64,000 nt of DNA from Siderastrea siderea (taxonomy: Eukaryota > Cnidaria > Anthozoa > Scleractinia > Rhizangiidae). Shown piece by piece: positions 1,958-51,084 of this stretch. Both the position numbers and the translations under genes were made by a program. Under the pieces are notes generated by a model that ran no database searches, was not told the DNA's origin, and saw nothing but the letters and a program-made list of their open reading frames with translations. Within the stretch, counting starts at the first letter, position 1. Every line of letters begins with the position of its first letter. The DNA lies in NCBI GenBank assembly GCA_964030785.1, contig OZ034968.1, positions 33,712,186-33,776,185 of the forward strand, in the 5' to 3' direction.

Positions 1958-4900
1958 ATGTTTGGCTGGTCGCCGCCAAATATTCTGGCGACTTTAGTAC
2001 TTTGTTTTTTACTCCTTCTTCAATTTCACCGGTCGTCAATACAAGCAAAGCCGTACCCAAAACAAGGGGTTCTAAGTACATATACAACAGGTAACCTTGG
2101 AGGCGTCCATGAAAGAGATTGGCCACAACTTGTAAACTATAAACATGGCCACTACATACAAAGAAATAAGCGAAGTCCGACTGAAGTCGAAGATGAAACG
2201 GTAGACAGTGCGGGGGAGAAAACCTTGAATGTAAAAGCTGGCAAGAGACAAGGTATTGAAACACCAATAGAACCTTTGACTTCGAATTCTGGTTTAGATT
2301 TTTCACGCTTGAACACTGAGGAAAATGTTCGCTCAAAAGTCGACCAGCCTGAAGGTGAATCTGTTGGTGTATCAGTGGAAGAGGAAAAGAAAGGTGTTGA
2401 TGACAGTTCTATAAAGCAAAACCAGCAGGAATCAAAGAAAAATGACGCCAATTCGTCAACCGGACAGGAGTCAAGCGAAGGACAAAAAGACGAACATGTT
2501 TCGTCAAGCAGTGAAAATGCCAACAATGATGGCAGTCTCGCTTCATCGGCGCAGGATAAAACTGATGCTAGCAAAGAAAGTCTGAACAAGGACACAAGTA
2601 CTGAAAACAAAGGTAGCGAAAGTACTGGGGAAAGTAAGGTAGGCTCGAGCAGCTCAGTTGATGAAAATGCACAAGTTCGCAGTGTCCAAGATGGTGTTAA
2701 TCAGCTCAATAAGCTAGGCAGTGTTCCTAATGACAAGAGCAATACTAAATCGGCAGGTTCTGCTCTACCACTGGAAAATAACCAGGCTAGTTCAACTCCC
2801 TCTAGTTCCAAAGAAAATCAGCAGCAAATACAAACGGCAATTAATAATAATGTCAACAATCAGCAGGTGAACTCCGATGCAAGCACAGTCGTATCTACGA
2901 AAGCTCAAACATCAGGCACTATAACCTCTTCAAGTAATCAAAACTCGGCAGCTTCTGCAAACAGCAGCCCATCAACGAAAACTCAGTCTCAAGAAAGCCA
3001 ACCGATAAACACAGTACCACAACTTCAAAATGCACCTGCAGAACCGGTACGAGACGCATTGGGAAATAGTGGATCAGAAATTGTGACAACTCAGTCTCGC
3101 AGAGCACCTGAATTTGACTCGTACACAGAACGCGACACTGAACCTAAACCTGCCAACGGACCTGAAGTCGGACATTTTCAAGTAGACGACAAATCAGCCG
3201 ATCTTGAAATTAACGCTAATTCTGCCGGAGTCAAAGTTAAAGCCAAACCTGCTTCATTGCAGGTGGTTTCACGCCCTGGTTCTCACCCCGGTTCGGGGGC
3301 ACAAGAGCGATCCTTGTTCAACCATTATCACTATCCACCTTACCATCCTCATCACCACTGGTATCCTGGTATGCGTAGGTCATTTGGACATCTCCACCGC
3401 CATCATTTCTTCAATCCTTATCGTCCTTTCCTAGAAAGACGTGGTTTTGATAGTTTTTACGACGAGGCACCCTTCTATCGTCGCCGAATGCACTACTGGT
3501 ACCCACACAGACATCGACACCATTATCGTGATTCTTATTTGTACGAAAGATCCCGATTGGAGGAACCAGAGGAGGTTTCGAAGTACCGCCGCGGAAGACG
3601 CCATAAACGGCGTTTTAGACATATGAATGGTCCTTATCGACGACAGTTTTACAACAACAACATTCCGATAATGAGTAGCATGGAATCACCTCAGATGGGT
3701 ATGGTACCAGAAGAAGGAACAATGCCACAGTTACCGATTGGACCAGGTCGACAGTTTTATCAGCGGCAAAACATAATAACGCCAGTGCCCCCACCTGTGA
3801 ACGTTTTTGGAAATCCACCACCTGGCCTGGTTGGAGGAATGAACGGAGCAAACTTTCCAATGAATGCCATGAACGGAATGAATGAAATGAGCGAATTGAA
3901 CAATTTCAATGGAATGAATCAAATGAATGGTGCAATAAATGGAATAAACGGCGTCAATGACATGAACAGTATGGGCACGATGGGCTTCAATTCTCCAGAA
4001 CAAATGGGAGCTGTTGAAGGCTTACCGGCAGGAATGACCAGAATGGAGCAAGCCCCTGGGATAACCAGAGCACTTGGATCCAGAAACATCCCAGCTGAGG
4101 CACCAAGAAGAGCATTCAAGAAGACTGCAATTCTTTCGGGAAAGACAAATAATGATACAACAAAGAAAGAACATTCACACAATGAGAAGATAGAAGCTAA
4201 AAAGAAAGATTCAAAGGAAGACCTCGAAATGACGCACGTATCTGGCAGAAAAAAGAAAGGGAACGTAAATATAAAAAGTTGGGAGAAAACTCTAAAACGT
4301 TATCACCGACTGAATACCTTTGCGTCAAAAGCTCATGAAAAGCACAAATTTCGAAGAAATGCCAAATCATCTTCTATGGATTCGGAATCAAAGAAAACTG
4401 AGGAGAAAAGTCCACGAAAACACAGCGTCTCCCATCTACACGCACAAAATGCAAAAGACGTAAAAGGAAAGCGGAAGAACGACATTGTAATGCACCGTCC
4501 GCCAATCATATATCATCCCCCTCCTGAAATCTATCATCGCCCTGACATCGTGGTTCACCGCGCTCCTATTATGCTGCATCGTCCACCTATAATCTACCAT
4601 CAGCCGCCTGTTGTCGTTCACCGACCGGCAATCATCTACCATCAGCCTCCAATAGTCTTCCACCAACCTCCGCCAATGGTCCATCAGCCAATCCTGCATT
4701 CTCACGACACGTGGGTGACAAAGCCTGTGGTGTACCACACAACATCCTCCGTTACCCACGAGAAGACATACTACGGAATACCATCTCACGTGTACGCTGG
4801 CGCTTATGGCGAGGGATGTCACGGAGGACATTGCGCGTACAGAAAAGAAAGTGTACCACATAGTAATAATACTCTGGAGGTAAACTCTACCCTTCATAAG

Positions 4901-7900
4901 AGGAAAACAAAACGTGACAGTTTAAGCGATTATTTAGCGTACTTCACGTCCCTGTGGAAAGCTAATTCTTTGAACAAAAGAGATGTTAAGGACGAATACG
5001 ATTTTATCACGTCAAGTGATGGTGCAAGTCAGAAGTTAAGCTACACAGATATGAATGCAGATGTCATGAGTAAACGGGACAGTGAGTCAAGTTACAAAAG
5101 ATACCTTCACAACATGTGGAACAATAAAGTCAAACGAGACACCGATGATTCCAAAAACGGAACAGAGAAGAAAAAGAAGAAAGACGTAGTTGTCAACCGT
5201 CCTCCCATAATTTATCATCCACCACCTGAAATCTACCACAGGCCAGACATTGTCGTCCACCGCCCTCCTCTTGTGATTCACAGGCCACCCATCATCTATC
5301 ATCAGCCACCAGTTATTGTTCATCGACCTGCCGTGGTGTATCATCAACCGCCAATTGTTTTCCACCAGCCGCCACCTGCAGTCAGCCAGCCACTGTTATA
5401 TTCTCATGACTCTTTTACTGTCCATCCTTCGTTCTATGCTACACATCACGGTTCTGTTGTACGTGACTTTGGACATTATGTGGGGGTTCCAAACGTCATA
5501 ACAAACTACGGAAATCCTCTATTTGGAAGGCCTCCAATTGGCAAAAGATCAAAGATAGAGACACCACCTTCAAATACGAACGCAACGTCGTCGGATAAAA
5601 CCGATTCAACAGAGGCTGCTTCCCAGAAAGCTATTCTAGGACACCAGGAAAGCAAAGCAAAGAATGAATCAAGTGAGAAAGCGGGAAAAAAGAACACTGT
5701 TCTGGTCCATAGGCCTCCAATAATTTACCACCCACCCCCCGAGATTTATCACCGTCCGATCATTGTGGTCCATCGACCACCAATCATGATTCACCGGGCA
5801 CCCATCTTTTATCATCAGCCACCAGTGGTTGTTCATCGTCCTGCTATAGTGTATCATCAGCCGCCTTTAATATTCCACCAACCACCGCCAATGGTGCACC
5901 AGCCAGTGTTGAAGTCCCACGATACCTGGATATCTCACCCAGTAGTGGTACCTTACTCGTCACGTGTCATGCATCACCACACCTACGTTGGCGTCCCTGA
6001 TGCCTATACTGTTCATCACTTTTCAGGAGAACACGGATTTTATAAGTCGCACATTTTAAAACATTCCAACCATGAAGATGAACACGCATTTGAAAGAAAT
6101 GAAATTAGTGGAGAGAAAAATTCCACAGAACAAGAGACGCATTCTTCCCACAAGCGCAAAATAACTTCGCACGATGATAAGCAAAACACGACCTTTAATC
6201 TCAAAACCAAGAAGGCAGCCAGTCAGAAAGGAGGAAAGAAAAATGCAGTCATCGTACGACGCCCACCAGTTATTTACCACCCACCGCCAGAGATCTACCA
6301 CAGACCAGAAATAGTAGTTCACCGCGCCCCTATCGTCATTCATCGAGCTCCAATAATTTATCACCAGCCGCCTGTTATTGTACATCGACCCGCTATTGTG
6401 TATCATCAACCACCGCTTGTATTTCATCAACCTCCGCCTGTCGTTCACCAGCCAGTTTATAGGTCACATGACACTTATGTTCACAGACCAGTAGTGAGGC
6501 TATACTCATCTAAGATACACCATGCAGGACACATGTACCACGTTCCTCACGCATATTACCATGGACATGGAGGTGCTATTCACTACATGAGTTATCAAAA
6601 ATCCAAGGTACCTCAAAAAGAAAATACTGTAGAAGAACGAGGGACCATAAGGGCCATTGTAAAGAGCAAGAAAGGGCATAGGAAAATAAGAACCAAGAAA
6701 AGCAGCCATACTGGACGAAAGCACGCCGCCTTAACAAGAAGCAAAGACAAGACAGAAACCGGGATAAAGCTTGATAAGAATCATAAAATCCTCTATCATA
6801 AAGCTAAGGAAACTACAGAAAAAGCCAACAAAAAGAACTCTGTAGTTATACACCGGCCGCCAATCATCTACCATCCACCACCAGAGATCTATCATCGGCC
6901 AGATATCGTAGTTCACCGTGCCCCTATAGTGCTTTATCGGGCTCCAATTGTCTACCATCAACCACCAGTGGTGGTTCATCGACCAGCCATTGTTTATCAT
7001 CAGCCACCTATAGTTTTCCATCAGCCTCCGCCTATGGTCCATCAGCCAGTTCTCCACTCACATGACACTTGGGTGGCCAAACCAGTAGTGGTCCCATACG
7101 CTTCTCACGTACGTCACATTGCCACATACAGGGGCGTCCCTCATGAAGAAATATTTATGCATGGGATAGGTACAGGAGCTTTTGGAAAATCAAGAGTACC
7201 CCTCAGAGGCTCCCGTAGGAATGAGATAGACAACGTTGCTGACAAAGGAAAGAAGCAAACAAGCAAGGACCAAACAAAGACAACGTCAACTGATCAAGGA
7301 AAGAATCGTACAACAAGAGCTGTTTATGATGAAATGCAACCCACAGAACGAATTGGAGCAGCAGAGAGAATAGCACGAGCATTAACAGATTCCTTGACGG
7401 ATGAACAGTGGGATTTTCAAGAAAAGAAGAGCCCTGTTGGAGTTGGAGCAAGAATTCGAAGACACATTGGAAATTTCCTTCCAGCGTACAGTGACGATCT
7501 ATCAAGTGGTGCTCTGATTTCCCAAGGTTTGAACGAGATACCGGAACACGCAGTGGGTGCTGCGACCAGAATTCAACGATCCATCAGTACCTTAGAAAGT
7601 TCAGTGGGTGCTGAAGCCAGGATACGGAGAGCGGTAGCAGAGCCTTGGAACACGTTTGAAGGTGAGCATCCATATCAAATGTATAAACGTAGTAGTGAGG
7701 AAACTGAAAACTCCTCAACACCAGACGAAAACGCAGACAAAAACAGCAATAGCACCAAAAAGACACTACTTATAATTCACAGGCCACCAATACTATATCA
7801 TCCACCGAGCCACATGATTCATCGACCAGCTATAGTTGTTCACAGGCCGGACATAATAGTCCACCGCCATCCAATCGTGTTTCACAGACCGCCAATACTA

Positions 7901-10900
7901 GTGCATCGTCCCCCAATCATAATTCATCGCCAGCCGGTTCTCATTCACAGACCGCCAATTATTGTTCATCGACCACCATTAGTGTTTCACCGGCCACCTA
8001 TAATCATTCATCGTCGTCCATATATTATTCATCACCATCCGATCCTCTTCCATCGACCGCCACTTATTATACACAGGGGACCTCAAATGATAGTGCATCA
8101 CTCCCATCTGATACATCATTATCCTATGCACATGATTCACATGCACTGTCCTGGTTGTGGCTTTGGGAAATCTACCGTTGCACGAATAGAGGCTAACAGA
8201 ACTGAACAAGACAATAAGAAAACATCTTATTCAGACAGATCGCTTAAAGACGCTACTGTCATGGATTCCCAAAGGAAAGGTTCTAACCCGCCAAAACGCT
8301 CTATTGCAGACAAGAAGTCAAAGAAAAGTTCCAAAGAAGAGCATCATAAAAAGGGGAAAGATGGACACAAAAAGAAGAAGGACGTAGTGGTCAACAGGCC
8401 CCCAATAATCTACCATCCACCACCAGAGGTATACCACAGACCAGACATAGTAGTGCACAGGGCTCCCATTCTTATTCACAGGCCACCTATTGTATATCAT
8501 CAACCTCCCGTAGTTGTTCACAGACCGGCTGTTGTTTATCACCAACCACCAATCGTATTCCACCAACCTGCTCCAGCAGTGAATCAACCACTGCTTTTCT
8601 CACATGATAGCTTCGTTGTACATCCCATGGCCTTTGCATCACACATGGGTTCTGTTGTAAACGACGCTGGTCACTACGTTGGCTTACCGCACGGTGGAGT
8701 TACTAATTTCCCAGGTTCTATACCGCATGGGCCAACAGGGCATGTGTTTCCTTCACTAAATTCGCCTGGCTGGTCGAGAAGGGCTGAAGTTTCGAAGCCG
8801 CAGAGCACGAAGAATGCAAAAGTCAACAATAACAAGCAAACCAAACACGGAAAGCGCTCCGCTGAGTTAGAGGATCACAAAAATGGAAAAGACGTTTATA
8901 AGAATGACAAGCCTGTACAGCAGGAGAGCAAGCAAGCCAAAGGTGAGAGAAAGAATAAAGTTATCGTTGCACGACCACCTTTGATTTATCACCCACCACC
9001 TGAAATTTATGACCGCCCAGACGTTGTAGTACACAGACCGGACATTGTGATTCACCAACCTTCAGTTGTGTATCACCAGCCATCTGTAGTAGTCCACAGG
9101 GCACCAGTGGTTTATCAACAACCTCCTGTTGTATTTCATCAACCAGCTCCAATGGTTAGTCAACCGGTGTACCACGCTCACGACACATACGTAGCACACC
9201 CAGTGTATCATCCGCATGAGAGCCACATTGCTCACTCTGCAACTTATGTTGGAGCACCCCATTACTACCCGGGACATAACAGTTATGGGTGGGGCTTACC
9301 AGGCAATTCACCAGCCGCACCGGCACTGCCTACTGCACAAATACCTCAATACGGTTATACAGCTGCATCCGCTTATCCTGGTGTCAATGGATACACACCA
9401 TATCCCGCTTCCTTAGGAAACGCTTTTGGAAGGTCAAAGGTTGAAAATCACAAGAAAGATCAAGCAACAAAGGACGACAATGAAGTTAAATTGAAAAAGG
9501 AAAAGAAAAAAAGCCGTAGAAGAAGGTCAGCCGGATTGAACAAGCGCCACGTGCATCATCATTATCATCACCATCACCACCACCATCATCGCCATCACCA
9601 CGACCATCAACATCACGGAAGTAAGCGCTTTTACCATTTTCGGCCAATCAGCTCCTTTGCACATGTAGGACATCGAAAACACGTTGTCGTCATACACCGA
9701 CCACCTCTTATATATCATCCACCTCCACAGGTTTACCGTCAACAAGACATCCTGATGCACCTACCTCCGCTTGTTTACCACAGACCACCGGTAATGTTCC
9801 ACCAGCCACCGACAGTAGTGCAACACCCTGCAATAGTCTATCATCAACCTCCCGTAGTCTTCCACAACCCTCCTTCAATTGTGCAAACACCAGTGATTCA
9901 CTCTCACGAGATGTTTTCACCTCACATACAGCATGTAATGGTTCCAACCGCATCATACATGCACCCTGCTGGAAACTATTTCGGGCCCGTTGTCGCAGGT
10001 CCAGCATATGGAAAGTCTGACATAGAGCGAGCTCATGCTGAGAAAGGCTCGCACACAAAAAGCAATCACAAGACGGCAAAAGCTGACGAAAAGAGGGAAG
10101 CTTCTGGCGTACCAGAAAAGGAAAAAACAGCTAAGAAAGGATCAAAGAAACAAAACGTTGACCTTGTGGTTCATCAACCGCCAATTGTCTACCATCCACC
10201 ACCGGATATCTTTGATAAGCCACCCGTTGTAGTGCATCAACCTCCGATGGTTGTCCACCGTGCACCCATCCTTATACACAGAGCTCCTGTTGTCGTACAC
10301 AGGCCTCCAGTGGTAATACACAGACCTCCCATTGTACTTCATCACACAGCACCCGTTTATCATGTAGCGCACGGGCATTACTTCCACCCAATGGGGTATG
10401 CCTTTGGGAAGTCCACAATAGAAGGCGAGAAAGATGAGAAATCTAAAGAAGATACATACAACGGTTTGAAACATAGCCTAAAGAAAAGCCATGCTAAAGG
10501 CCACAAACCAAAATCAAACACCAAGAAGGGACAACGAAAGAATATGGTTTTGATTCATAGACCTCCCATGATATACCATCCTCCACCGGAAATCTACGAT
10601 CGACCGGATGTTATAGTGCATCGCCCAGACATTGTCATACATAGACCATCAGTCGTGTATCACCAACCATCAGTCGTTGTTCATAGGCCTCCAATCATTT
10701 ACCACCAGCCACCAGTTGTTTTTCACCAGCCAGCACCGATGGTGCATCAACCAGTTATGCATGCGCACGATTCATATGTTGCACATCCCATTCCAGTGCC
10801 ATACACTTCACACATTCAGCATGCAGCAACTTACGTTGGAGCTCCACACTTTTTTAATCAGCCACAGTTTGGTGGATACATGGGACATGCCTTTGGAAAA

Positions 10901-13900: not shown

Positions 13901-16900
13901 CGGCGCTCAGTTGAGTTGAGAAAACGTTCCACTAAAAAAACTACACTTCACAAAAAGGGGCACAAAACGGACGAGGGCGGAAAGAAAAACATGGTATTAG
14001 TGAAACGGCCCTCTCTTGTGTACCATCCACCTCCCGAAATCTATCACAAGCCTGATGTTATTGTGCATCGACCGGATGTAGTTGTTCACCAGCCTTCAGT
14101 GGTATACCATCAACCTTCAGTCGTAGTTCACCGCCCACCGGTCATTTATAACCAACCTCCGGTTGTATTTCATCAGCCAGCCCCGACGGTCAACCAACCA
14201 ATTTTTCACGCGCACGAAAATTACATGGCCCACCCTGCCTTTGTTCCTTACGTGAGTAGTATCCAACATTCAGGAACTTATGTAGGAGCTCCGGAGTTCT
14301 TCCATGGGGAAGGGAGCTTTGGGTACGGTCATGCCTTTGGAAAATCGCACGTCGTTAAACACGAATCCAAGTCCAGCAAGCAAAGCGCAAAATCTGACAA
14401 GAAAAGCAAAATTAGTACCAAAAGAAAGGTTTTCCATCCCCAAGAAAAAAAAGATGAAAAAGCTTCGAGAAAGAATAACATAGTTGTTAGCCGTCCTCCG
14501 ATTATTTACCACCCTCCGCCTGAAATTTACCACCGACCAGACATCGTAGTTCACCGAGCTCCAATAGTGCTTCACCGTCCACCGATCATTTATCACCAGC
14601 CACCCGTAGTTGTCCATCGACCTGCCGTTGTATATCATCAACCCCCCGTAATCTTCCATCAACCACCTCCGACTGTTCATCAGCCCATTCTACATTCTCA
14701 CGACTCATTTGTTGTCCGACCGGCCGCCAGATTCTTCCCACAAGGGTCCACGCTCACACACAGCATGAGTTACGTGGGAATTCCAAACCACGTTGTCCAT
14801 GGCGATGAACTAGGGTTTCACCACTTTCAACGTTCACAAATAGAACATACCGGCAAACATGCATCGATTAAGAAGCCATCGAATGCCCAAGTGGCGAAAT
14901 CGACCATCTCTAAAATGCCCACAACTAACAAAGAAAATACAGAAACCACTATTACTGACCAAACGCAAAAGAAGACTTTGCGATCTGCCATACACCATCA
15001 CAGATTATCTAAAAGACAGCTCATTGGTTCTCATTCACTTTTTGGATCGCTTTCTCCTATAAATAAAATTCTGGACTCCCAAAAATCAGTTGAACAAACC
15101 GAAAAGCTATCAACTATCCCGGGGGATACCTCAGATCGTGAAAACAACATTGCCAAGAGACAACTTATTTTACCAGAATCTACTGAAAATATCTACCACA
15201 CCTCTTTACCCTCAGTTTATAATACACTGGAAATGGCTGCATTGCAAAACCAAGCTTTAGCGGCCTCTGATGGCTTATCACAAACGAATGGGGTTGACGA
15301 GGTTCATTTCCCTGGTATTGCATCCAGTTTACAAGCACTTCAAGGACTGCAGGGGACTAGAATGACACGGTATCCTTTCCCTTTGCAACATTACCTGCAA
15401 GCAGTCCCAAAAGGTGATTCGCCAGACGTACGTGTTCACGTTGAAACTGCCAAGTCCTCTATACCGCTCAATGTACGCGCAAAGCGGCAGATTCTTCCTT
15501 TATACCAGCAACAAGTCACTTCCCAAATGCCTCGAGTTCTCTATCAGTCATCAAGTCTTGGGGATTTGGAAGGAGCCACACCCTTACCTACACCTTCCTC
15601 TGTTTATCACTTATTCAGTCCCTACCATGCGATGTATCATCCCGTTGCAGACCAATATCATTACCTAGGAATTCCGTCCCCGTTAATTCATCGTCCTCAC
15701 GTAAATATAAACGTGCAGTCGGCAAGATCTATGATACCTGACGTAGACCATGTCATCAAAAAGCGATCGGATGAGAAAAAGTCAAAGCGACAGTTTCTAG
15801 CGGTCGTGCCACCTCTATCTCCTGGCCTTTCCCTTGGCTTAGGAGCAGGACTCATGTCTAACTACCTCCCCTTTTCACCGTACTCGGCTCTGTCACGTTT
15901 TCCATATCCACTTTTACCACGCCTAGGGTATCCTGAAGAATCTGAATCTGACTCAGAAGAGACCACATTCCCAGAAGCATTACCACTTCTCCGCCATCCA
16001 TTATCAATCCCACACACTCCATATAGCGCATTCTCAGGCGATGAAGATAATGATTCACCGTCATTTAATCCAGTGGCTTCATACTTAACCGCACTTTACA
16101 ATAGCTACCTTGGATATCCATTTTACCACCGCCATCACAAACCTAAAGTTCACGTAGAGGTACATGCATCAAAATCACAAATACCCAAAGCAACAGACAA
16201 CAAGCAAGACGTTCATTCTCGTATTTCTAAACGGCAGTTGTATAATTACTTACCAGCATCACCATTAATCGCAAACCACTATCCCTTGCCTGCAGCTTTG
16301 AATTACGGAATACAAGGGCTTCATCACAATTCTCCGCACGTGAACATTAACGTAGAAACAGCAAAGAGACATGGAATTCCTTCAGGAATCAAGGAAAGAA
16401 GATCTCCAGTAGCAGCCAAAAGAAAGCCACAAGACGAAACACAAACTGGAGATAAAAGAGATGAACTTTTAGAAGACGGAGGAAATGGACAGGAAATTTC
16501 CCCATATCAAGCCAACCCTAATTTTGCAAACGCACCGGAGAATCAGTTTGTTGCTACAAGCGAAAGCAGCGAACCTCAAGAGATTGTTTCAAATGACAAC
16601 GAGCAGATTCAGGCCCTACCCCAGCAACAACTGGGCCAAGAAACGGCTGGACAACAGCAGGACCAACAGCAGGACCAACAGCAGGAGCAACAACAGGAAC
16701 AACAACAGGACCAGCAACAGAACTCAGCTCAACAACAACCAGTACCTTTTCCCAATCAGCCAATGGCTATGCCGTTTCAAGCACAACAGTTGGGTTTCCG
16801 AGCACCCCTCGAAACAATGCAAGTACAGGGTCAAGCACCAATACAGCTATCCACGCAACCAGCTTTTAATGTACCTATTGTAGCACCATACATGGCTCCC

Positions 16901-19900
16901 ATTCAAGGCTTCGTCCCTAGTGCACTACCTGGTGTTTCAAGTATCTCTACCGCAGAACAATCAGGTGCACAACAAACACTGGGTAGTCAAGAGGGACAAC
17001 CTAAGCATACTTCGATTAACGTTAACGTGGCCGCGAAGTCTATTGTTCCAACTAAAAAGTCGAAGAAGAGTAAGAAATCTCATGGTAAACGACATTTAGT
17101 AGCTTCACCGCAGGGCAATGTTCCCGTCAACGGAATTCCGAATCCTTACACGGGTGATACGCCATTACAGAATAACAACCGCCCTCGAGTTTCAATCAAT
17201 GTAGAAACTGTCAAAAAATCAGCCTTGGAAAACGACCCCGAAAAGCGCCAGAGTATTTCACTTTTAACACGATTTCCAGCAATGCAAGTGTTGCCGCAAA
17301 CGTTTAAGCAGAATGGCGTTTTGATGCCCGCGTTTAATACCTTGCCGGTAAATCACAGAATTAAGGCCAATGGGATGCTGCTGGAAGAACTGCAACGGCA
17401 GAGAAAGCATCAGATTCCAAAAACAGCTAAAGGGACCAAAACAGCAAGCCAAAGAGGCAAGATCAATAGAGAAAAGGGGAAACAAAAGGAGAATGCAAAG
17501 AAACGCCAATTCTACGTAGTTCCACAGTCAACATTACCAGTTCAACAATACGTATTAGCTTCACAACCAAGCATCCATCAAAGACCCAAAGTTTCAGTCA
17601 ATGTTGAAGTGAACAAGAGAAAGTCTGAATTTCCACAAGGGAAATATCACGAAAGGAAACAAAAACGGCAGGTATATGGAATAGAGCAGCTTCCCCATAT
17701 GGTCCAGATGCCACTTGCTAATACACCTTTGCTGCCGCAAATTCCTTTCAGAGCACAGCGACCCCGAGTGTCAGTCCACGTAGAAACCGCAAAAAGAAAG
17801 ACTTTAGGACAAAAAGAACACACCAGCAAAGAAAAACGTCAAATATATGGCTTGTCTGAATTACCACACGAAGGAATGTTGCAGCCATTTTCACTAGCAA
17901 GTCAAAGTCAGCCACTTGGATATTTGCCTAGAACACTGCACAGTCCGCATGTTTCTATCAATGTTGAGGCGTCAAAGCGATCAGAAGATGGTTTACAAGA
18001 TGATATTCATAAACGCCAAGTTCTAGGTGTGCAACCTAATCGGGTCGAGGAAACCCTCGAACAAGCTCAGGAACCCGTTCGGCCTGGCCAAGCATCATTT
18101 CAGTCGGATGAAATGGCACAAGACGATACTGCACAAAATCCAATTCACGCACAAGAGCAGCCACAAGAAGACGAGCTGTCATCGGAGGCTATTCAATCAA
18201 GTCCCGAAGCAGCTCAACAACAACAACAACAACAGCAACAGCAAGAACAGCAACAACAACAACAAGTAGGAGAACTACCTTCAGGGGGAGTTCCATCTCA
18301 GGCAGTTTTTAGCGACATTCTTGATCAGCGTCCAAGAGTTTCTATTCATGTGGAAGCCTCAAAAAGAGGAAAAACCGAAAGCAAACAAAAACATCACAAA
18401 TCAAAGTCTAAGATGTCTGAGCATAATGATCAAGCAAAGAAGCAGGAAACAGGAAAGAAAACGAGAAGACAACTTTTTGGCACCGTTCCTCTTCTTATTT
18501 CCTTGGGGCAGAATGCGGAGCATGGCGAGAAAAGAAAAATAAACAACGCCAGGTCATTTGTGCCTCAGTCAGTAGGAAACTTAGACAGAAAGGACAGGCT
18601 ATTATGGAAGCGACAGCTTTACAATTATTTGGGAGGTCAACAGGAGCAGCAGATTGTCCCTACCCAGGCGATACAAGATACTGCTGACGCTGAACAACAA
18701 CCGCAAGGCATCCCAATGCAGCCTGTTCAGGTTTTCCAACAAGATAACGGAGCACAGACACAGCTAGCACAAGTTAACCTTCCGCAAGCCTCCTTGTTAG
18801 AATCGAGCAATCAGTTGTCTCCACAACAATATGCGGGCCAAACAGAAGTACCCGAGAACAGCCAGCAAGCCTCTACGTCAAGCATTCAATCTGAACCTTC
18901 GCTGAGCCCGCTTGGTGCGCTTCACCGTCCTCACGTGAGCATAAACGTTCAAACAGCGAAATCAAAAGTGCCAACCCCGGTGAAAGCAAAAAGGACTATA
19001 GCGGAAAACCAATCAGCCAACACCCAGGCTAACGAAAAGCAGAAATTCAAAAGGCAGTTTGATGTACTTGGCGGTGGTGGCATACTTGAAAGAAGACGGG
19101 GTCCAAAGTTCTTAGCCGCACCTTTAAAGAAAACACGACCAGGAAACCTATTTGGTTTAGGAAGTAACCTGAATAAACCTGTAGAGGTGTTCGCAGATCC
19201 GATCGCCAACCTTGTTGCTGGTGGACGAAAGAGACCAAAACTAGGAGGGATTCGAATCGATAGTCCCACCGGTGTTGGACCATTACCACTAAAAGGAGGT
19301 GTCAACCCTCTAGGCGGCACCCTTGCTAATGATGTGGGTGCACCAGCAATAATTCAAGACAATGCTGCAGAAGCAATTGCGCCATTTGTACAGGAACCGC
19401 CAGCGAATGGTGGCAATCCTTTTTCTCCTCCTAGTGGTATAGCAGGGCCTCGAATTGATGCTATTGGGAAGGGAGATAACGGTGACTTGTCATTAGCCGA
19501 CCTACCCCCAAACAGACCAGCAATTTTTCCTTTGCCTGCACTTAATCAGGCCGTCATGCAGAGCTTGCCTTTCGCAGCCGCTGCACCACCCCCTCAAGAG
19601 AGACCTCTTTTTCTTGCTCCCCGAGTGCTTCCAGTAGCCCCAGTTGTACCACTGGCATCTCCTATAGCAGTACCACCACCACCAGTACCCGCAGTGGAAG
19701 ATACAGGACCAGAGCTTCCACATGTTCCTCAGACTGGCCCAATACTTCCACCTGTAATCCCCATGCCACTGCCTAATGCTTTGCCACCTCCCCCTCTTCC
19801 CAACCCAGAAAGTTTGTTTCCAGAGTCAGATGATGATAAACCATCGGTGCACGTTAATGTGGAAACGTCGAGATCGCATGTTCCCGATAGGAAAGCACAC

Positions 19901-19939
19901 TCCAAGCAGCACGCGAGTGGCCAAGCCAGTCGTGGCTAG
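1958..19939 (+). CDS. Gene 1: giant secreted His/Pro-rich repeat precursor (5,993 aa)
   Basis: One uninterrupted frame of 5,993 codons. The ATG at 1958 has A at -3 and opens a signal peptide (hydrophobic core around residues 9-23, likely cleavage after Ala30). Regions in order: Ser/Asn/Gln-rich leader (about 60-370); conserved module starting at Phe407 (FQVDDK, then EINAN, then VKVKAKPASLQVV); His/Tyr/Arg-rich stretch (about 450-550); Met/Asn-rich GMN repeats (about 625-670); 18 His-Pro modules (nt 4489-14860) separated by Lys-rich linkers; tail with KRQ sites and PxVxINVETAK motifs (nt 15007-19905). Outside the signal peptide I find only four cysteines, in CHGGHC and CPGC. No enzyme domain is visible. 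Inference: an extracellular structural precursor cut at dibasic sites. Histidine and tyrosine content suggests metal binding or oxidative cross-linking. I cannot name the family; mucin, collagen and minicollagen are excluded by composition. Confidence 0.9.
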   Translation: MFGWSPPNILATLVLCFLLLLQFHRSSIQAKPYPKQGVLSTYTTGNLGGVHERDWPQLVNYKHGHYIQRNKRSPTEVEDETVDSAGEKTLNVKAGKRQGIETPIEPLTSNSGLDFSRLNTEENVRSKVDQPEGESVGVSVEEEKKGVDDSSIKQNQQESKKNDANSSTGQESSEGQKDEHVSSSSENANNDGSLASSAQDKTDASKESLNKDTSTENKGSESTGESKVGSSSSVDENAQVRSVQDGVNQLNKLGSVPNDKSNTKSAGSALPLENNQASSTPSSSKENQQQIQTAINNNVNNQQVNSDASTVVSTKAQTSGTITSSSNQNSAASANSSPSTKTQSQESQPINTVPQLQNAPAEPVRDALGNSGSEIVTTQSRRAPEFDSYTERDTEPKPANGPEVGHFQVDDKSADLEINANSAGVKVKAKPASLQVVSRPGSHPGSGAQERSLFNHYHYPPYHPHHHWYPGMRRSFGHLHRHHFFNPYRPFLERRGFDSFYDEAPFYRRRMHYWYPHRHRHHYRDSYLYERSRLEEPEEVSKYRRGRRHKRRFRHMNGPYRRQFYNNNIPIMSSMESPQMGMVPEEGTMPQLPIGPGRQFYQRQNIITPVPPPVNVFGNPPPGLVGGMNGANFPMNAMNGMNEMSELNNFNGMNQMNGAINGINGVNDMNSMGTMGFNSPEQMGAVEGLPAGMTRMEQAPGITRALGSRNIPAEAPRRAFKKTAILSGKTNNDTTKKEHSHNEKIEAKKKDSKEDLEMTHVSGRKKKGNVNIKSWEKTLKRYHRLNTFASKAHEKHKFRRNAKSSSMDSESKKTEEKSPRKHSVSHLHAQNAKDVKGKRKNDIVMHRPPIIYHPPPEIYHRPDIVVHRAPIMLHRPPIIYHQPPVVVHRPAIIYHQPPIVFHQPPPMVHQPILHSHDTWVTKPVVYHTTSSVTHEKTYYGIPSHVYAGAYGEGCHGGHCAYRKESVPHSNNTLEVNSTLHKRKTKRDSLSDYLAYFTSLWKANSLNKRDVKDEYDFITSSDGASQKLSYTDMNADVMSKRDSESSYKRYLHNMWNNKVKRDTDDSKNGTEKKKKKDVVVNRPPIIYHPPPEIYHRPDIVVHRPPLVIHRPPIIYHQPPVIVHRPAVVYHQPPIVFHQPPPAVSQPLLYSHDSFTVHPSFYATHHGSVVRDFGHYVGVPNVITNYGNPLFGRPPIGKRSKIETPPSNTNATSSDKTDSTEAASQKAILGHQESKAKNESSEKAGKKNTVLVHRPPIIYHPPPEIYHRPIIVVHRPPIMIHRAPIFYHQPPVVVHRPAIVYHQPPLIFHQPPPMVHQPVLKSHDTWISHPVVVPYSSRVMHHHTYVGVPDAYTVHHFSGEHGFYKSHILKHSNHEDEHAFERNEISGEKNSTEQETHSSHKRKITSHDDKQNTTFNLKTKKAASQKGGKKNAVIVRRPPVIYHPPPEIYHRPEIVVHRAPIVIHRAPIIYHQPPVIVHRPAIVYHQPPLVFHQPPPVVHQPVYRSHDTYVHRPVVRLYSSKIHHAGHMYHVPHAYYHGHGGAIHYMSYQKSKVPQKENTVEERGTIRAIVKSKKGHRKIRTKKSSHTGRKHAALTRSKDKTETGIKLDKNHKILYHKAKETTEKANKKNSVVIHRPPIIYHPPPEIYHRPDIVVHRAPIVLYRAPIVYHQPPVVVHRPAIVYHQPPIVFHQPPPMVHQPVLHSHDTWVAKPVVVPYASHVRHIATYRGVPHEEIFMHGIGTGAFGKSRVPLRGSRRNEIDNVADKGKKQTSKDQTKTTSTDQGKNRTTRAVYDEMQPTERIGAAERIARALTDSLTDEQWDFQEKKSPVGVGARIRRHIGNFLPAYSDDLSSGALISQGLNEIPEHAVGAATRIQRSISTLESSVGAEARIRRAVAEPWNTFEGEHPYQMYKRSSEETENSSTPDENADKNSNSTKKTLLIIHRPPILYHPPSHMIHRPAIVVHRPDIIVHRHPIVFHRPPILVHRPPIIIHRQPVLIHRPPIIVHRPPLVFHRPPIIIHRRPYIIHHHPILFHRPPLIIHRGPQMIVHHSHLIHHYPMHMIHMHCPGCGFGKSTVARIEANRTEQDNKKTSYSDRSLKDATVMDSQRKGSNPPKRSIADKKSKKSSKEEHHKKGKDGHKKKKDVVVNRPPIIYHPPPEVYHRPDIVVHRAPILIHRPPIVYHQPPVVVHRPAVVYHQPPIVFHQPAPAVNQPLLFSHDSFVVHPMAFASHMGSVVNDAGHYVGLPHGGVTNFPGSIPHGPTGHVFPSLNSPGWSRRAEVSKPQSTKNAKVNNNKQTKHGKRSAELEDHKNGKDVYKNDKPVQQESKQAKGERKNKVIVARPPLIYHPPPEIYDRPDVVVHRPDIVIHQPSVVYHQPSVVVHRAPVVYQQPPVVFHQPAPMVSQPVYHAHDTYVAHPVYHPHESHIAHSATYVGAPHYYPGHNSYGWGLPGNSPAAPALPTAQIPQYGYTAASAYPGVNGYTPYPASLGNAFGRSKVENHKKDQATKDDNEVKLKKEKKKSRRRRSAGLNKRHVHHHYHHHHHHHHRHHHDHQHHGSKRFYHFRPISSFAHVGHRKHVVVIHRPPLIYHPPPQVYRQQDILMHLPPLVYHRPPVMFHQPPTVVQHPAIVYHQPPVVFHNPPSIVQTPVIHSHEMFSPHIQHVMVPTASYMHPAGNYFGPVVAGPAYGKSDIERAHAEKGSHTKSNHKTAKADEKREASGVPEKEKTAKKGSKKQNVDLVVHQPPIVYHPPPDIFDKPPVVVHQPPMVVHRAPILIHRAPVVVHRPPVVIHRPPIVLHHTAPVYHVAHGHYFHPMGYAFGKSTIEGEKDEKSKEDTYNGLKHSLKKSHAKGHKPKSNTKKGQRKNMVLIHRPPMIYHPPPEIYDRPDVIVHRPDIVIHRPSVVYHQPSVVVHRPPIIYHQPPVVFHQPAPMVHQPVMHAHDSYVAHPIPVPYTSHIQHAATYVGAPHFFNQPQFGGYMGHAFGKSEVEKVKNENSKNEDESKIKKKIHGETKAKSRPTRDADSKEKGTKKLNLTLPRISKGHKKNKVIINRPPMIYHPPPEIYDKPDVIVHRPDIVIHRPSIVYHQPSVVVHRPPIVYQAPSVVFHQPPPLVNQPIMHAHDTYVAHPVPVPHSSHIQHTSTYVGSPHHYPGGWNYGWSQPHLFGLAYGKSNVPAIKHNSSKHSKPARNNTVRRAAKDKGKKGDENVTQKSAKGRKKNQVLIQRPPLIYHPPPEVYHKPDVIVHRPDIVIHRPSLIYHQPSVVVHRPPVVYHQPPVVFHQPSPMVSQPVLHAHDTYVTHPYFSPYSSDVYHGGSYVGAPHFYNGGWKGHGYGLTHAFGKSEVESAHKKNKHHKDKSKDLKGSRRTLAKEVKEAEDEISLKNETKNVTGGNKKNLVIMRRPPLIYHPPPEVYHKPAVIMHRPDIVIHRPSIVFHQPSVVVHRPPVIYQQPPVVFHQPSPMVHQPILHSHDTYLAHPHFVPYTSHVHHTESYVGAPHFYPGDWGFGGHGYGFHHAFGKSKVEKASKHQRKSNSDKEKDGHDGDGEKRTLPVKRDTPDNDELNSKKKATTKGHKKNLVIMRRPPLIYHPPPEVYHKPDVILHRPDIVIHRPSVVFHQPSVVVHRPPVIYHQPPVVFHQPSPMVHQPIFHSHETYLAHPHFVPYLSHITHAGSYVGAPHFYPGHWGSTHGFGHFMGHAFGKSKVEKGTKKGKFATVKKGNKNSGVAVLEKIRREASYHDFPKGNRKSKLNVQDTKVTSAKGEKKETKLHPEKEDKKVHHKAHRKNLVLVQRPMLIYHPPPEIYDRPDIIVHRPDVVIHQPSVVYHQPSVVVHRPPIIYHPPPVVFHQPAPMVNQPMYTSHDIYHSHPHFVPYASHVRHAQTYVGAPHYYPGGWRYGYGFPGNSVAQQVGASRWNVLRTPSPLYQANYAAPTRIAMPNAIRSPYRSAFAKSDVQKHHEKAEDPKKNHTIKHKETDNKKPHQFVEKEGKRNRRSVELRKRSTKKTTLHKKGHKTDEGGKKNMVLVKRPSLVYHPPPEIYHKPDVIVHRPDVVVHQPSVVYHQPSVVVHRPPVIYNQPPVVFHQPAPTVNQPIFHAHENYMAHPAFVPYVSSIQHSGTYVGAPEFFHGEGSFGYGHAFGKSHVVKHESKSSKQSAKSDKKSKISTKRKVFHPQEKKDEKASRKNNIVVSRPPIIYHPPPEIYHRPDIVVHRAPIVLHRPPIIYHQPPVVVHRPAVVYHQPPVIFHQPPPTVHQPILHSHDSFVVRPAARFFPQGSTLTHSMSYVGIPNHVVHGDELGFHHFQRSQIEHTGKHASIKKPSNAQVAKSTISKMPTTNKENTETTITDQTQKKTLRSAIHHHRLSKRQLIGSHSLFGSLSPINKILDSQKSVEQTEKLSTIPGDTSDRENNIAKRQLILPESTENIYHTSLPSVYNTLEMAALQNQALAASDGLSQTNGVDEVHFPGIASSLQALQGLQGTRMTRYPFPLQHYLQAVPKGDSPDVRVHVETAKSSIPLNVRAKRQILPLYQQQVTSQMPRVLYQSSSLGDLEGATPLPTPSSVYHLFSPYHAMYHPVADQYHYLGIPSPLIHRPHVNINVQSARSMIPDVDHVIKKRSDEKKSKRQFLAVVPPLSPGLSLGLGAGLMSNYLPFSPYSALSRFPYPLLPRLGYPEESESDSEETTFPEALPLLRHPLSIPHTPYSAFSGDEDNDSPSFNPVASYLTALYNSYLGYPFYHRHHKPKVHVEVHASKSQIPKATDNKQDVHSRISKRQLYNYLPASPLIANHYPLPAALNYGIQGLHHNSPHVNINVETAKRHGIPSGIKERRSPVAAKRKPQDETQTGDKRDELLEDGGNGQEISPYQANPNFANAPENQFVATSESSEPQEIVSNDNEQIQALPQQQLGQETAGQQQDQQQDQQQEQQQEQQQDQQQNSAQQQPVPFPNQPMAMPFQAQQLGFRAPLETMQVQGQAPIQLSTQPAFNVPIVAPYMAPIQGFVPSALPGVSSISTAEQSGAQQTLGSQEGQPKHTSINVNVAAKSIVPTKKSKKSKKSHGKRHLVASPQGNVPVNGIPNPYTGDTPLQNNNRPRVSINVETVKKSALENDPEKRQSISLLTRFPAMQVLPQTFKQNGVLMPAFNTLPVNHRIKANGMLLEELQRQRKHQIPKTAKGTKTASQRGKINREKGKQKENAKKRQFYVVPQSTLPVQQYVLASQPSIHQRPKVSVNVEVNKRKSEFPQGKYHERKQKRQVYGIEQLPHMVQMPLANTPLLPQIPFRAQRPRVSVHVETAKRKTLGQKEHTSKEKRQIYGLSELPHEGMLQPFSLASQSQPLGYLPRTLHSPHVSINVEASKRSEDGLQDDIHKRQVLGVQPNRVEETLEQAQEPVRPGQASFQSDEMAQDDTAQNPIHAQEQPQEDELSSEAIQSSPEAAQQQQQQQQQQEQQQQQQVGELPSGGVPSQAVFSDILDQRPRVSIHVEASKRGKTESKQKHHKSKSKMSEHNDQAKKQETGKKTRRQLFGTVPLLISLGQNAEHGEKRKINNARSFVPQSVGNLDRKDRLLWKRQLYNYLGGQQEQQIVPTQAIQDTADAEQQPQGIPMQPVQVFQQDNGAQTQLAQVNLPQASLLESSNQLSPQQYAGQTEVPENSQQASTSSIQSEPSLSPLGALHRPHVSINVQTAKSKVPTPVKAKRTIAENQSANTQANEKQKFKRQFDVLGGGGILERRRGPKFLAAPLKKTRPGNLFGLGSNLNKPVEVFADPIANLVAGGRKRPKLGGIRIDSPTGVGPLPLKGGVNPLGGTLANDVGAPAIIQDNAAEAIAPFVQEPPANGGNPFSPPSGIAGPRIDAIGKGDNGDLSLADLPPNRPAIFPLPALNQAVMQSLPFAAAAPPPQERPLFLAPRVLPVAPVVPLASPIAVPPPPVPAVEDTGPELPHVPQTGPILPPVIPMPLPNALPPPPLPNPESLFPESDDDKPSVHVNVETSRSHVPDRKAHSKQHASGQASRG
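7340..7645 (+). repeat. Four short G-A-x-x-R-I-x-R repeats inside gene 1
   Basis: Between His-Pro modules 5 and 6 the linker holds RIGAAERIARAL, VGVGARIRRHIG, VGAATRIQRSIS and VGAEARIRRAVA, spaced 17-40 residues apart. Each is a small basic amphipathic segment. They occur nowhere else in the protein that I can see. Confidence 0.75.
7777..8190 (+). repeat. Pure hexapeptide His-Arg-Pro ladder (module 6)
   Basis: About 18 consecutive six-residue units of the type HRPPII, starting HRPPILYHPP and ending in a His/Met-rich stretch with CPGCGFGKST. It lacks the YHQPP and FHQPP units of the other modules. The CxxC here is one of only two cysteine pairs in the mature protein. Confidence 0.85.
9547..9617 (+). 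repeat. Poly-histidine tract in gene 1
   Basis: A run coding mostly for His with interspersed Tyr, Arg, Asp and Gln (CAT/CAC codons), just after the basic stretch KKKSRRRRS and before module 9. Mixed codon use argues against simple recent trinucleotide slippage. Confidence 0.85.
16651..16739 (+). repeat. Gln-rich QQQD/QQQE tract in gene 1
   Basis: CAA/CAG-rich stretch coding for tandem QQQD and QQQE units. Likely length-variable between alleles. Confidence 0.8.
18215..18265 (+). repeat. Poly-Gln tract in gene 1
   Basis: CAA/CAG run coding for about 17 glutamines with one Glu, between a KRQ site and a PRVSIHVEASK motif. Confidence 0.85.
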
Positions 19940-49000: not shown

Positions 49001-50024
49001 GTAGCAATTTACTGTAGTACTGTTTAGTATACTGACAAGGTTGTTTAAGTCAGTGTACGAAGTCCCAAAGTGTGATCATTCAGATGAAAGCTATTTAACA
49101 GTTCTCGTCTCTGCCACAGTCTGATAAGCTGTGCAATGTAGTCTACGGAACTTCTAAAGTATGACCATTCAAATGAAAGCTTACATGCTGCACTTTTTAA
49201 GAGAGATGTTTGTGAATATTTTGGACAAATAAAATGCATGATTTTTGTTTAGTTTAAAAAAGAATCGGTGGCCTTTGAGAAAAAAAAATTATAAGCTAAG
49301 TAGATTGACACTACGTATAGATATAAGCAAACTGTTGTGCTATATTGGCTGACAAGTACGCGAACTTCGATTTTCTGATTTGGAGAGAATTTAGCAAAAA
49401 CTAACCGTACACGTAAATTGGTAGGTCCAAAAGGTGTTGCCGTCCAACACTTGTCCTTTCTCACATAGAGCAAAAGGCAAACGCCCGAAATTTCATCTTT
49501 TTGCCATGACATTTATTTCAATGACAGTAAATGACTAAGTATAAAAATCTGACAATTAAGCAGTCGTTTAATCCAACAAAGACAGTATACAAAGCAATTG
49601 ACAAAAATTACCATTTGCCACTCAATGAGTTCGACATATCTTCAACTACGTTCCTGTAGTAGAATGTTTGTAGGTCATAATACTCCGTATGAGGGCCTAA
49701 CTTAGCTTTTTTTCCCGACCCTTTTTTGACAAAGCTTTCCATGCACTCCGTGTCTTTCTACACTGAAAAAACCGCCCCCAGCCCTAGTAACATGGAATTT
49801 ATAAAAATGATGATAGAAAGCAATCGGAAAGAATTGGGCCACTTGTCGCATCGGTGGTTAAAGGTTATTAATTATTTACCACTGGTATGATATCACCAAA
49901 ACCTATCCAATGAAAAAAGGAAAAGGGTAGCGATTTCACTTTCCTTTTGTCGCGATAGAAATGTGGATTTTTCTTCTCTGAAGCCAAAAAAGTTGTGCAC
50001 AAGTATTTTTGTTCAAGTACAAGC
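46018..50024. other. Intergenic region between genes 2 and 3
   Basis: No gene, tRNA or clear repeat is supportable. Several short open frames exist without recognisable content. Confidence 0.5.
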
Positions 50025-51084
50025 ATGACATGGTTATATTTTGGCGATGAAGTTCGGGTAACACTTTGTCTTGTTTGTTTGTTCGCCTGTTATGGAAGCG
50101 TTGAGCCAAAACCATTACCCGAAGATGGTGGCACAGTGACTCAAACCGGTGAACCGTCACATTTTCAAGTCGATGACAAGGCCGCTGAGATCGAAGTAAA
50201 CGCCAATCCTGCCGGAGTGAAAGTTAACGCTAAACCAGCGTCTCTTCAAGTCGTTGCAAAGCCGGGAACCCCAGCTGTACCTATATTCCACCCAGCAATA
50301 CACCTCGCTCAGCATTATGAGCCACCCCCAGTCATCCATCACCATCCAGCCATGTTTTACCATGGATGCTTCAATTATCCGTATTGTCAGCACTGGGGTT
50401 TTTACAATGGAATCAAACGTGAAAATTTTCCTAAACCGCGCAAAGATGAAGTTAATGTCAGAACACACAAATCTGACATCCCTCGAGCAAATAAGAACAA
50501 AAAGGGCGTTAAATCACGGAAACGTCAATTTATCTCTGCCGTTCCGCAGCTTTTTCAACCCTCTTCGCTGGGTGCTCTGAGAGGCCTCAGCGCTTATGGA
50601 TATGGTGCCTTACCTCAATATGCTCCATTAGGCTCGATGCTAGGAGCTTACGGTCTACGACAAACTCCTCAAGCGCAATTATTGTCATCACCAGCGCAGC
50701 TTACTCCTCAGCAAAGTCTCCAAGAGACTGGTCTGGCAAGAGGCATAGTCCCTACAATGGCAAACGATCAAGATAATTCTGAAGTTTTACGAGGTTATCA
50801 AAAGCTTTATAGCGAGCTGAATAGCCTTAACTCTCTCTACAACGCCATCTTGAGACAAAGAAGCCTGAACTCTTTACAAGGTTTGGGGTATGGTAGTGCA
50901 CTGGGTGTTGGCAGTGCACCAAGTTTCACTGCAGAAGGGAGTGGCCTGGGTTATGTACCTTCAACGTTAGGAACTCCTCAGTATGGTAGCGAAATGATGA
51001 GTTATGGAAAAGCTTACGTCCCCTCGCCATTGTCCCAGCTTTATAGATCGCAGAGCTCCCTATCTCCTTCCAACGGACTGCTTG
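50025..51084 (+). CDS. Gene 3 exon 1: secreted paralogue of gene 1 (protein 728 aa in total)
   Basis: The ATG at 50025 (the in-frame GTG further upstream is not a start) opens a signal peptide (VTLCLVCLFACYGS, cut near residue 25). The family module follows at residues 47-81, FQVDDKAAEIEVNANPAGV then KVNAKPASLQVV, closest to that of gene 1. Then comes a His/Pro/Tyr stretch with two cysteines (GCFNYPYCQHW), EVNVRTHKSDIP (the strand-plus-KSxIP signature), and a dibasic SRKRQFISAV. The rest is Leu/Gln/Tyr/Gly-rich low complexity. The exon ends CTTG at a GTATGT donor. Unspliced, the frame would stop 20 bases later. Function unknown; a secreted precursor cut at KR is inferred. Confidence 0.8.

What the first reader, a model, noticed from the sequence alone, without database searches (positions are those of the whole stretch)
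1958..19939. A single uninterrupted 18-kb frame coding a 5,993-aa secreted His-Pro repeat protein
The sequence shows one frame with signal peptide, 18 His/Pro/Tyr/Val modules and a multi-site basic-cleavage tail, without one intron or stop. I recognise no family. An intronless animal gene of this size that is extracellular, Tyr- and His-rich and nearly cysteine-free suggests a self-assembling, cross-linked or metal-coordinating material (cuticle, glue, skeletal matrix or capsule). The role is inference.
Basis: partly seen in the sequence, partly recalled or inferred. Interest (0 to 1): 0.9.

Follow-up and report, generated by a model that had tools for sequence, protein, structure and literature searches.

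The report
Giant cnidarian histidine-proline polyprotein precursor
A coral-like genome carries one unbroken 18-kb gene for a giant secreted protein, with relatives in corals, sea anemones and Hydra, that looks built to be cut into many histidine- and proline-rich building blocks of a still unknown body material.

Summary
In detail: window 1958-19939 (+) is one frame of 5,993 codons with signal peptide, 18 His/Pro heptad modules, a dibasic-rich tail and 5 cysteines. Relatives of like architecture exist in Stylophora, Oculina and Nematostella (5,019-6,136 aa), and a shorter-tailed one in Hydra (4,502 aa), all named hypothetical or uncharacterized. Modules are the conserved part (87% identity to Stylophora, 70% to Nematostella; linkers 54% and 43%). 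New here: a dibasic pair lies at the start of 18 of 18 modules, and the tail holds 13 [KR]R|Q sites. I read it as a polyprotein cut into about 30 chains. Two related secreted genes lie in the window (41527-43428; 49995-53418), and Cys/Gly/His-rich frames lie upstream. No Pfam or PDB family fits. Ten paper searches gave no paper that I recognised as treating it. AlphaFold gave no confident fold (pLDDT 48.7). Best reading: a precursor of self-assembling structural chains of a cnidarian secretory cell, perhaps the stinging cell. Cleavage, assembly and cell type are inferred; I had no expression or proteomic data.

The parts
1958..19939 (+). whole frame, 5,993 aa, giant secreted His/Pro polyprotein
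   Evidence: relatives
1958..2050 (+). signal peptide (about aa 1-31), judged by eye
   Evidence: hydrophobic stretch; similar N-terminus in P0010 and P0012-P0025
3143..3292 (+). N-domain FQVDDKSADLEINANSAGVKVKAKPASLQVV (about aa 396-445), shared with the two neighbouring genes
   Evidence: aa 396-450 are 89% identical to P0019 and 76% to P0026
3308..3757 (+). Arg/His/Tyr-rich segment (aa 451-600)
   Evidence: composition
4478..4801 (+). module 1
   Evidence: profile hit
5183..5506 (+). module 2 (100% identical to its best match in Stylophora, 94% in Nematostella, 83% in Hydra)
5693..6034 (+). module 3
6242..6580 (+). module 4
6836..7174 (+). module 5
7766..8143 (+). module 6, divergent and long, two overlapping profile hits
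8381..8704 (+). module 7
8954..9295 (+). module 8
9683..10000 (+). module 9
10160..10507 (+). module 10
10541..10876 (+). module 11
11081..11422 (+). module 12
11597..11929 (+). module 13
12122..12457 (+). module 14
12662..13000 (+). module 15
13286..13627 (+). module 16
13988..14329 (+). module 17
14474..14821 (+). module 18
15011..19936 (+). C-terminal part with 13 [KR]R|Q sites; 10 of the 13 chains carry a VxVNVExxK[SR]-type motif
41527..43428 (+). related secreted gene, 633 aa from ATG, GPHVPxVHI repeats plus STVYHQPPIVFHQP; Nematostella LOC5512467 is a relative
49995..51084 (+). second related gene, exon with N-domain and one tail-type motif (probable ATG 50025, by eye)
52292..53418 (+). 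second related gene, following exon with two KR|Q sites; splice inferred from GTATGT at 51085 and CTGCAG ending at 52291, frame kept

Best explanation
The gene encodes a secreted polyprotein. It enters the secretory path by a signal peptide and is cut by a furin/prohormone-convertase-like protease at dibasic sites into about 18 module chains (each with nine or so heptads P-[PDSA]-[VI]-[VI]-[YVF]-H-[QR] and a conserved SHDTYV..YVGxPH part) and about 13 C-terminal chains that begin with Gln (possibly pyroglutamate). The chains are stored and, once released, assemble without disulfides: hydrophobic VVY/IIY triplets pack, Pro-Pro sets the repeat, the regularly spaced His act as a pH and/or metal switch, and Tyr may cross-link. 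It is the large partner of a local set of related secreted genes. Shown: frame, modules, site grammar, conservation, kinship of the neighbours. Inferred: cleavage itself, assembly, His chemistry, cell type. Cell type, weakly: a cnidarian secretory cell, cnidocytes first.
For: A dibasic pair ([KR][KR]) lies in the 8 residues at the module start in 18 of 18 modules here, 18 of 18 in P0019, 15 of 15 in Nematostella P0026, 6 of 6 in P0032, 8 of 11 in Hydra P0028 and 4 of 6 in P0037, against 14-21% of 8-residue stretches in linkers; within a tight four residues it is 17 of 18 here. [KR]Sx[VIL][PE]: 21 against a mean of 1.7 (maximum 8) in 300 shuffles; [KR]RQ: 15 against 2.4 (maximum 8). 13 of 13 tail [KR]RQ sites are kept in Stylophora, 10 of 13 in Nematostella. 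Modules are conserved more than linkers in 5 of 5 relatives compared. Heptads: His at position f in 133 of 153, Pro at a in 140 of 153. Signal peptide, no Pfam domain above cut-off. 9 of 61 protein hits bear names, and those 9 are cnidarian; no prokaryote relative confirmed. Hydra isoforms drop module-bearing blocks, which resembles the many splice variants reported for nematocyte-specific Hydra genes (passages of PMC2687796).
Against: No transcript, peptide or localisation data. Dibasic pairs also occur inside the first 80 aa of 4 of 18 modules here, 6 of 18 in P0019, 3 of 15 in P0026 and 3 of 11 in Hydra. The ten residues after the tail sites are hardly better conserved than the tail in Nematostella (0.43 against 0.36; Stylophora 0.71 against 0.54). 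The [FY]G[KR]Sx[VI][EP] end follows only 8 of 18 modules within 200 residues. Hydra has 6 [KR]Sx[VIL][PE] motifs (shuffle maximum 5), no Q preference after KR, and only about 280 aa after its last module, so the tail of many chains is not shared by all. AlphaFold shows no ordered fold (pLDDT 48.7, pTM 0.14), so a packed heptad structure is unproven. The Cys-rich domains of known nematocyst wall proteins (PMC6910907) are absent.
Confidence: 0.6

Rival explanations
1. It is a component of the cnidocyst (nematocyst or spirocyst: thread, spines, matrix), i.e. the same precursor logic placed firmly in the stinging cell.
For: The 9 named relatives are cnidarian, from Anthozoa and Hydra; signal peptide plus KR sites and phylum restriction fit nematocyte genes described in PMC2687796 (passages); Gly/His-rich spinalin is a precedent for a His-rich cnidocyst protein (passages of PMC10014300 and PMC9205923); ultra-Cys-rich frames lie nearby.
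Against: No expression data; no minicollagen-type Cys-rich domain in the giant protein (5 Cys); the relation of the Cys-rich neighbours to cnidocysts is untested; 52 of 61 hits are unnamed, and myxozoans were not looked for.
Confidence: 0.4
2. It makes an epidermal coat, mucus, glue, tube or perisarc material secreted by gland or epidermal cells.
For: Composition and His spacing, shared by skeletal and soft cnidarians; the nearby Cys/Gly/His-rich frames recall, from memory, vertebrate epidermal structural gene clusters.
Against: No direct evidence; paper searches on pedal-disc adhesives and on cuticle listed nothing that I recognised as relevant, most of the listed papers not opened.
Confidence: 0.3
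3. It works uncut, as one very long elastic or fibrous chain; Lys-rich linkers are spacers and the dibasic pairs merely reflect their composition.
For: Linkers are Lys-rich (16% K); single continuous frame; few cysteines; dibasic pairs inside some modules.
Against: 18 of 18 placement against a 21% background and its recurrence in other cnidarians; the separate tail grammar.
Confidence: 0.2
4. It is a coral skeletal matrix protein.
For: The nearest named relatives are stony corals (Stylophora P0019, Oculina P0020); matrix proteins are often repetitive (recalled).
Against: Long relatives in Nematostella and Hydra; no held paper joined histidine-rich, coral and skeletal organic matrix.
Confidence: 0.05
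5. It is a neuropeptide or signalling-peptide precursor.
For: Signal peptide, many dibasic sites, many KR|Q starts.
Against: None of the 13 tail [KR]RQ sites and only 4 of the 36 sites of the listed types (KRQ, RRQ, KRS, RRS, KRD, KRN, RRN) are preceded by the Gly that amidation needs; the predicted tail chains are 48-338 aa and the modules about 110 aa.
Confidence: 0.05

Closest known systems
Uncharacterized/hypothetical proteins: Stylophora AWC38_SpisGene9031, Oculina LOC144643886, Nematostella LOC116618347, Hydra LOC100210570
   Same: Signal-peptide-like N-terminus and the same heptad modules with dibasic starts; the first three are near full-length relatives (module starts were tested in P0019, P0026 and P0028, not in Oculina P0020)
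   Different: Predicted only, without a function; Hydra isoform X1 has 28 Cys, a short tail and sister isoforms that lack module blocks; Nematostella is about 1,000 aa shorter
Hydra spinalin (nematocyst spines)
   Same: His-rich secreted cnidarian structural protein (passages only)
   Different: Described as Gly- and His-rich; this protein has 5.5% Gly and is built of Pro/Val heptads. No sequence comparison was made
CPP-1, Cnidoin and minicollagens (nematocyst wall)
   Same: Secreted, low-complexity; CPP-1 is Pro-rich (passages)
   Different: Those cross-link by terminal Cys-rich domains (PMC6910907); none here
Mussel byssal preCol His-rich domains (passage of PMC4944945); squid suckerins and beak proteins, Nereis jaw protein (recalled)
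   Same: His thought to mediate cross-links in secreted load-bearing materials
   Different: No kinship known to me and none tested; none is known to me as a polyprotein of this size
Pfam Chorion_3 (PF05387)
   Same: Low-level profile match to part of the module array, also precomputed for 10 of the 22 relatives
   Different: 20.4 bits against a cut-off of 22.0 here: read as a compositional resemblance

Membership tests
Cnidarian giant His/Pro heptad family (LOC116618347/LOC100210570 group) | Heptad modules with RPPxIYHPPPE and YHQPP core | tested here: met
Cnidarian giant His/Pro heptad family (LOC116618347/LOC100210570 group) | Module order shared with hexacoral relatives | tested here: met
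   reciprocal best modules collinear: 16 of 18 with P0019, 14 of 18 with P0025, 10 of 18 with Nematostella P0026
Cnidarian giant His/Pro heptad family (LOC116618347/LOC100210570 group) | Module order shared with Hydra | tested here: inconclusive
   only 1 of 18 modules (module 2) is a reciprocal best hit; the tree groups it with hexacoral module 2
Minicollagen/CPP-1/Cnidoin type nematocyst wall proteins | Terminal Cys-rich domains of six Cys | tested here: not met
   only 5 Cys in 5,993 aa
Spinalin | Gly- and His-rich composition | tested here: not met
   Gly 5.5%, His 7.7%; no sequence comparison was made
Amidated neuropeptide precursors | Gly before dibasic sites | tested here: not met
   0 of 13 tail [KR]RQ sites, 4 of 36 listed sites
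Chorion_3 (PF05387) | Score above the curated cut-off | tested here: not met
   20.4 against 22.0 bits
Cnidocyst component | Expression in cnidocytes or presence in capsules | not testable with these tools
   no expression or proteomic data; supplementary files not readable
Polyprotein precursor | Conserved candidate cleavage sites at module borders | tested here: met
   internal dibasic pairs in some modules are the exception
Polyprotein precursor | Cleavage shown on the protein | not testable with these tools
   needs proteomics

The most novel reading that the evidence does not exclude
Cnidarians own a dedicated, ancient structural-protein locus: one giant polyprotein that is cut to length into some 30 histidine-switch chains, with smaller relatives and ultra-Cys/Gly/His-rich partners close by, making a phylum-specific extracellular material (cnidocyst part or surface coat). 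Part of its module identity has been held since before anthozoans and Hydra separated. It would be a disulfide-poor, His-driven building system unlike described cnidarian or silk proteins.
Probability: 0.35. Interest if true: 0.82.

Novelty: new variant of a known kind. Interest (0 to 1): 0.64.

Why it matters
A conserved, very large protein family shared by corals, a sea anemone and Hydra has no functional name, no Pfam entry above cut-off and no paper that my ten searches let me recognise. If it is a cut-to-length precursor of a histidine-driven material, it gives a testable part list for a cnidarian structure whose chemistry is open, and a natural design for disulfide-poor protein materials. 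Nematostella and Hydra are both genetically tractable (recalled), so expression and knockdown can settle the role directly.

Tried and rejected
Pfam on the giant frame in three pieces: only sub-threshold Chorion_3 and Cuticle_3 in the middle piece. PDB by sequence and by module and neighbour profiles: nothing credible. Pfam on the neighbours and on six upstream frames: nothing above cut-off. Prokaryote genomes: 21 pattern matches, none confirmed as a relative. AlphaFold on module 2 with 17 modules: mean pLDDT 48.7, no secondary structure, so I ran no fold search. A tblastn of five pieces of the three genes against 110 kb of fetched flanks (part of it N) found no further relative.

Papers: module and neighbour strings, gene names (one accession was a guess of mine) and skeletal matrix listed none; topic searches listed 15 different papers. 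I opened 7 and saw passages only: PMC9935875, PMC12549020, PMC10014300, PMC6910907, PMC2687796, PMC9205923, PMC4944945; the other 8 I saw as listings. The library holds open-licence papers only and I could read no supplements, so 'undescribed' is not proven.

Concerted evolution of all modules is not favoured: the best Stylophora match beats the best paralogue in 17 of 18 modules. But it does so in only 10 of 18 against P0025, 11 of 18 against Nematostella and 2 of 18 against Hydra, and in the tree some modules pair within one species (P0025 13/14; Nematostella 7/13, 10/11, 12/14), so modules 8-17 have a mixed history. The tree has few columns and 29 of 92 inner branches are open. The promoter scan of 100 bases had no good reason and is not used.

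Rows dropped: for the module comparison profile hits under 60 bits were left out, so 18 of 19 hits of the giant protein and 11 of 13 Hydra hits were used; alignment A1, the codon count and the heptad count used 17 of 18 modules, without module 6; one search used 8 of the 52 relatives. In one search only the 7,999 candidates sharing most words were scored; all three protein searches see only proteins of 0.55-1.75 times the query's length.

Full report
Observation. The frame 1958-19939 (+) reads ATG to stop without interruption, 5,993 aa, and no other frame of the window exceeds 642 aa from a start codon. The window holds no N. The chance of such a frame in random codons is about 1e-125. Among 17 module cores the third codon position differs far more (0.647) than the first (0.304) and second (0.094), and single-change codons are 3,988 synonymous against 952 non-synonymous: the reading frame is under protein-level selection. 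In the own genome (831 Mb, 402 contigs) module 2 finds 23 places, 19 of them inside this frame and 4 weak ones elsewhere (E 2e-5 or worse); that search scores only its best candidates, so this suggests, and does not prove, a single copy.

Anatomy. Signal peptide (aa 1 to about 31), Ser/Asn/Glu-rich prosegment, an N-domain at about aa 396-445, an Arg/His/Tyr-rich segment, a Met/Asn/Gly segment, 18 modules between aa 841 and 4288, and a tail. The module core is a row of heptads P-[PDSA]-[VI]-[VI]-[YVF]-H-[QR]: Pro at position a in 140 of 153, His at f in 133 of 153 (17 modules, nine heptads each counted), followed by a conserved stretch SHDTYVxHP..YVGxPH; [FY]G[KR]Sx[VI][EP] follows 8 of 18 modules within 200 residues. 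Module 6 is long and divergent.

Processing grammar. A dibasic pair lies in the 8 residues at the start of 18 of 18 modules (within four residues: 17 of 18); in relatives it is 18 of 18 in Stylophora P0019, 15 of 15 in Nematostella P0026, 6 of 6 in P0032, 8 of 11 in Hydra P0028 and 4 of 6 in P0037, while 14-21% of 8-residue linker stretches hold one. [KR]Sx[VIL][PE] occurs 21 times (300 shuffles: mean 1.7, maximum 8) and [KR]RQ 15 times (mean 2.4, maximum 8). In the tail 13 [KR]R|Q sites delimit chains of 48-338 aa, 10 of which carry a VxVNVExxK[SR]-type motif; 13 of 13 sites are kept in Stylophora and 10 of 13 in Nematostella. Against this: dibasic pairs occur inside the first 80 aa of 4 of 18 modules here and 6 of 18 in P0019, Hydra has no Q preference after KR and only about 280 aa behind its last module, and residues just after the tail sites are hardly better conserved than the rest in Nematostella (0.43 against 0.36).

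Relatives. A search with aa 400-1700 returned 22 proteins, 7 of them named: Stylophora SpisGene9031 (6,136 aa), Oculina LOC144643886 (5,959), Nematostella LOC116618347 isoform X2 (5,019) and four Hydra LOC100210570 entries (3,771-4,502). A search with 1,391 aa returned 30 further proteins, none named. Identity by pairwise MAFFT, which can slip in repeats: modules 87, 89, 76, 70 and 50% and linkers 54, 57, 40, 43 and 30% against P0019, P0020, P0025, P0026 and P0028. Reciprocal best modules are collinear for 16, 14 and 10 of 18 modules against P0019, P0025 and P0026, but only 1 of 18 against Hydra: module 2, at 83% identity. In the module tree Hydra module 2 groups with hexacoral module 2 (SH-aLRT 87), and the module 7 group lies next to it (few columns, 29 of 92 inner branches open). 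So at least one module identity seems to predate the split of the hexacoral and Hydra lines; Hydra does not bear out the full order, and modules 8-17 have a mixed history even among hexacorals. The Hydra isoforms lack adjacent blocks 1689-2368 or 958-1688, which implies exon cassettes there.

Neighbours. The frame 41527-43428 (633 aa from ATG) is a second secreted protein with GPHVPxVHI repeats and a YHQPPIVFHQP stretch; it matches 9 proteins, 2 of them named: Actinostola QZH41_003850 and Nematostella LOC5512467 isoform X2. P0006 and P0026 show the same longest-contig length (13,717,364), which suggests one Nematostella contig. Frames 49995-51104 and 52243-53418 join in frame over a GTATGT...CTGCAG intron into one 738-aa product, whose N-domain matches the giant protein (E 1e-14). 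The Actinostola model contains relatives of both neighbours, so they are probably adjacent there too. tblastn of five pieces of the three genes against 110 kb of fetched flanks found no further relative at E 1e-3.

Wider locus. Upstream on the same contig, frames of extreme composition appear: a minus-strand Gly/Cys/His frame of 539 aa with three KR|C sites (shuffle mean 0.08, maximum 1) and two [KR][ST]x[VIL][PAE] sites, RSKLA and RTNVP (mean 0.02, maximum 1), but none of the stricter [KR]Sx[VIL][PE]; a 217-aa frame with YRSNIPKG and KRQVVAPFG; and plus-strand frames with runs such as CCHDCCHDCC and CKWPCMWPCCCTC. Pfam has nothing above cut-off for the six tested (the 539-aa frame was not among them). 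That they belong functionally with the giant gene is a guess from position and motif style.

Structure. AlphaFold2 with 17 paralogous modules gave mean pLDDT 48.7 and pTM 0.14 without secondary structure. It neither supports nor excludes an assembled beta or polyproline form.

Mechanism. Shown: secretion signal, modular precursor, conserved candidate cleavage sites, kinship. Inferred: cutting by a dibasic protease, storage, assembly through hydrophobic triplets with His as pH or metal switch, and the cell type. The cnidocyte is my first guess because the named relatives are cnidarian and because phylum-restricted, variably spliced nematocyte genes and His-rich spinalin are precedents (passages in PMC2687796, PMC10014300, PMC9205923), but the wall-type Cys-rich domains are missing (compare PMC6910907). 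A coat or glue is nearly as likely. A skeletal role is unlikely given Nematostella and Hydra.

Novelty. The proteins stand in databases without a function; ten searches for module strings, gene names and topics gave no paper that I recognised as treating them (open-licence library, no supplements, 7 of 15 listed papers opened in passages). As a kind it is a secreted repetitive structural-type precursor, known in the broad sense, but the heptad, the disulfide-poor make-up, the size and the polyprotein layout are a new variant.

Noticed in passing
window 24471-26051 (-): Reverse transcriptase (RVT_1) with a sub-threshold GIY-YIG match (20.5 of 22.6 bits): looks like a Penelope-like element (the name is recalled).
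   Followed up: no
window 56935-58407 (+): Leucine-rich-repeat protein with C-terminal EF-hand matches just under cut-off, an ordinary-looking gene next to the secreted set.
   Followed up: no
L024:8905 onward into L023, and L024:8111-8761 (-): Gly/Cys/His-rich frames with KR|C and KR|Q/W starts and RSKLAK/RTNVPQK/RSNIPKG stretches, much like the border motifs of the giant protein.
   Followed up: partly
L027:6502-6924, L028:2877-3647, L029:5922-6386, L029:8482-9123, L030:1048-1461 (+): Ultra-Cys/His-rich frames (CCHDCCHDCC, HCCHCCHCC, CKWPCMWPCCCTC); the last two look near-identical in their C-terminal half by eye, so probably tandem duplicates.
   Followed up: partly
window 32695-32797: Perfect two-copy 51-bp tandem duplication.
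   Followed up: no
P0028 against P0029-P0031: Hydra isoforms skip adjacent blocks of 680 or 731 aa, each holding module hits: alternative splicing changes module number.
   Followed up: partly
P0006 (Nematostella LOC5512467 isoform X2): Compared with its relatives it lacks the first GPHVP repeat block, another hint of splicing within the repeat genes.
   Followed up: no
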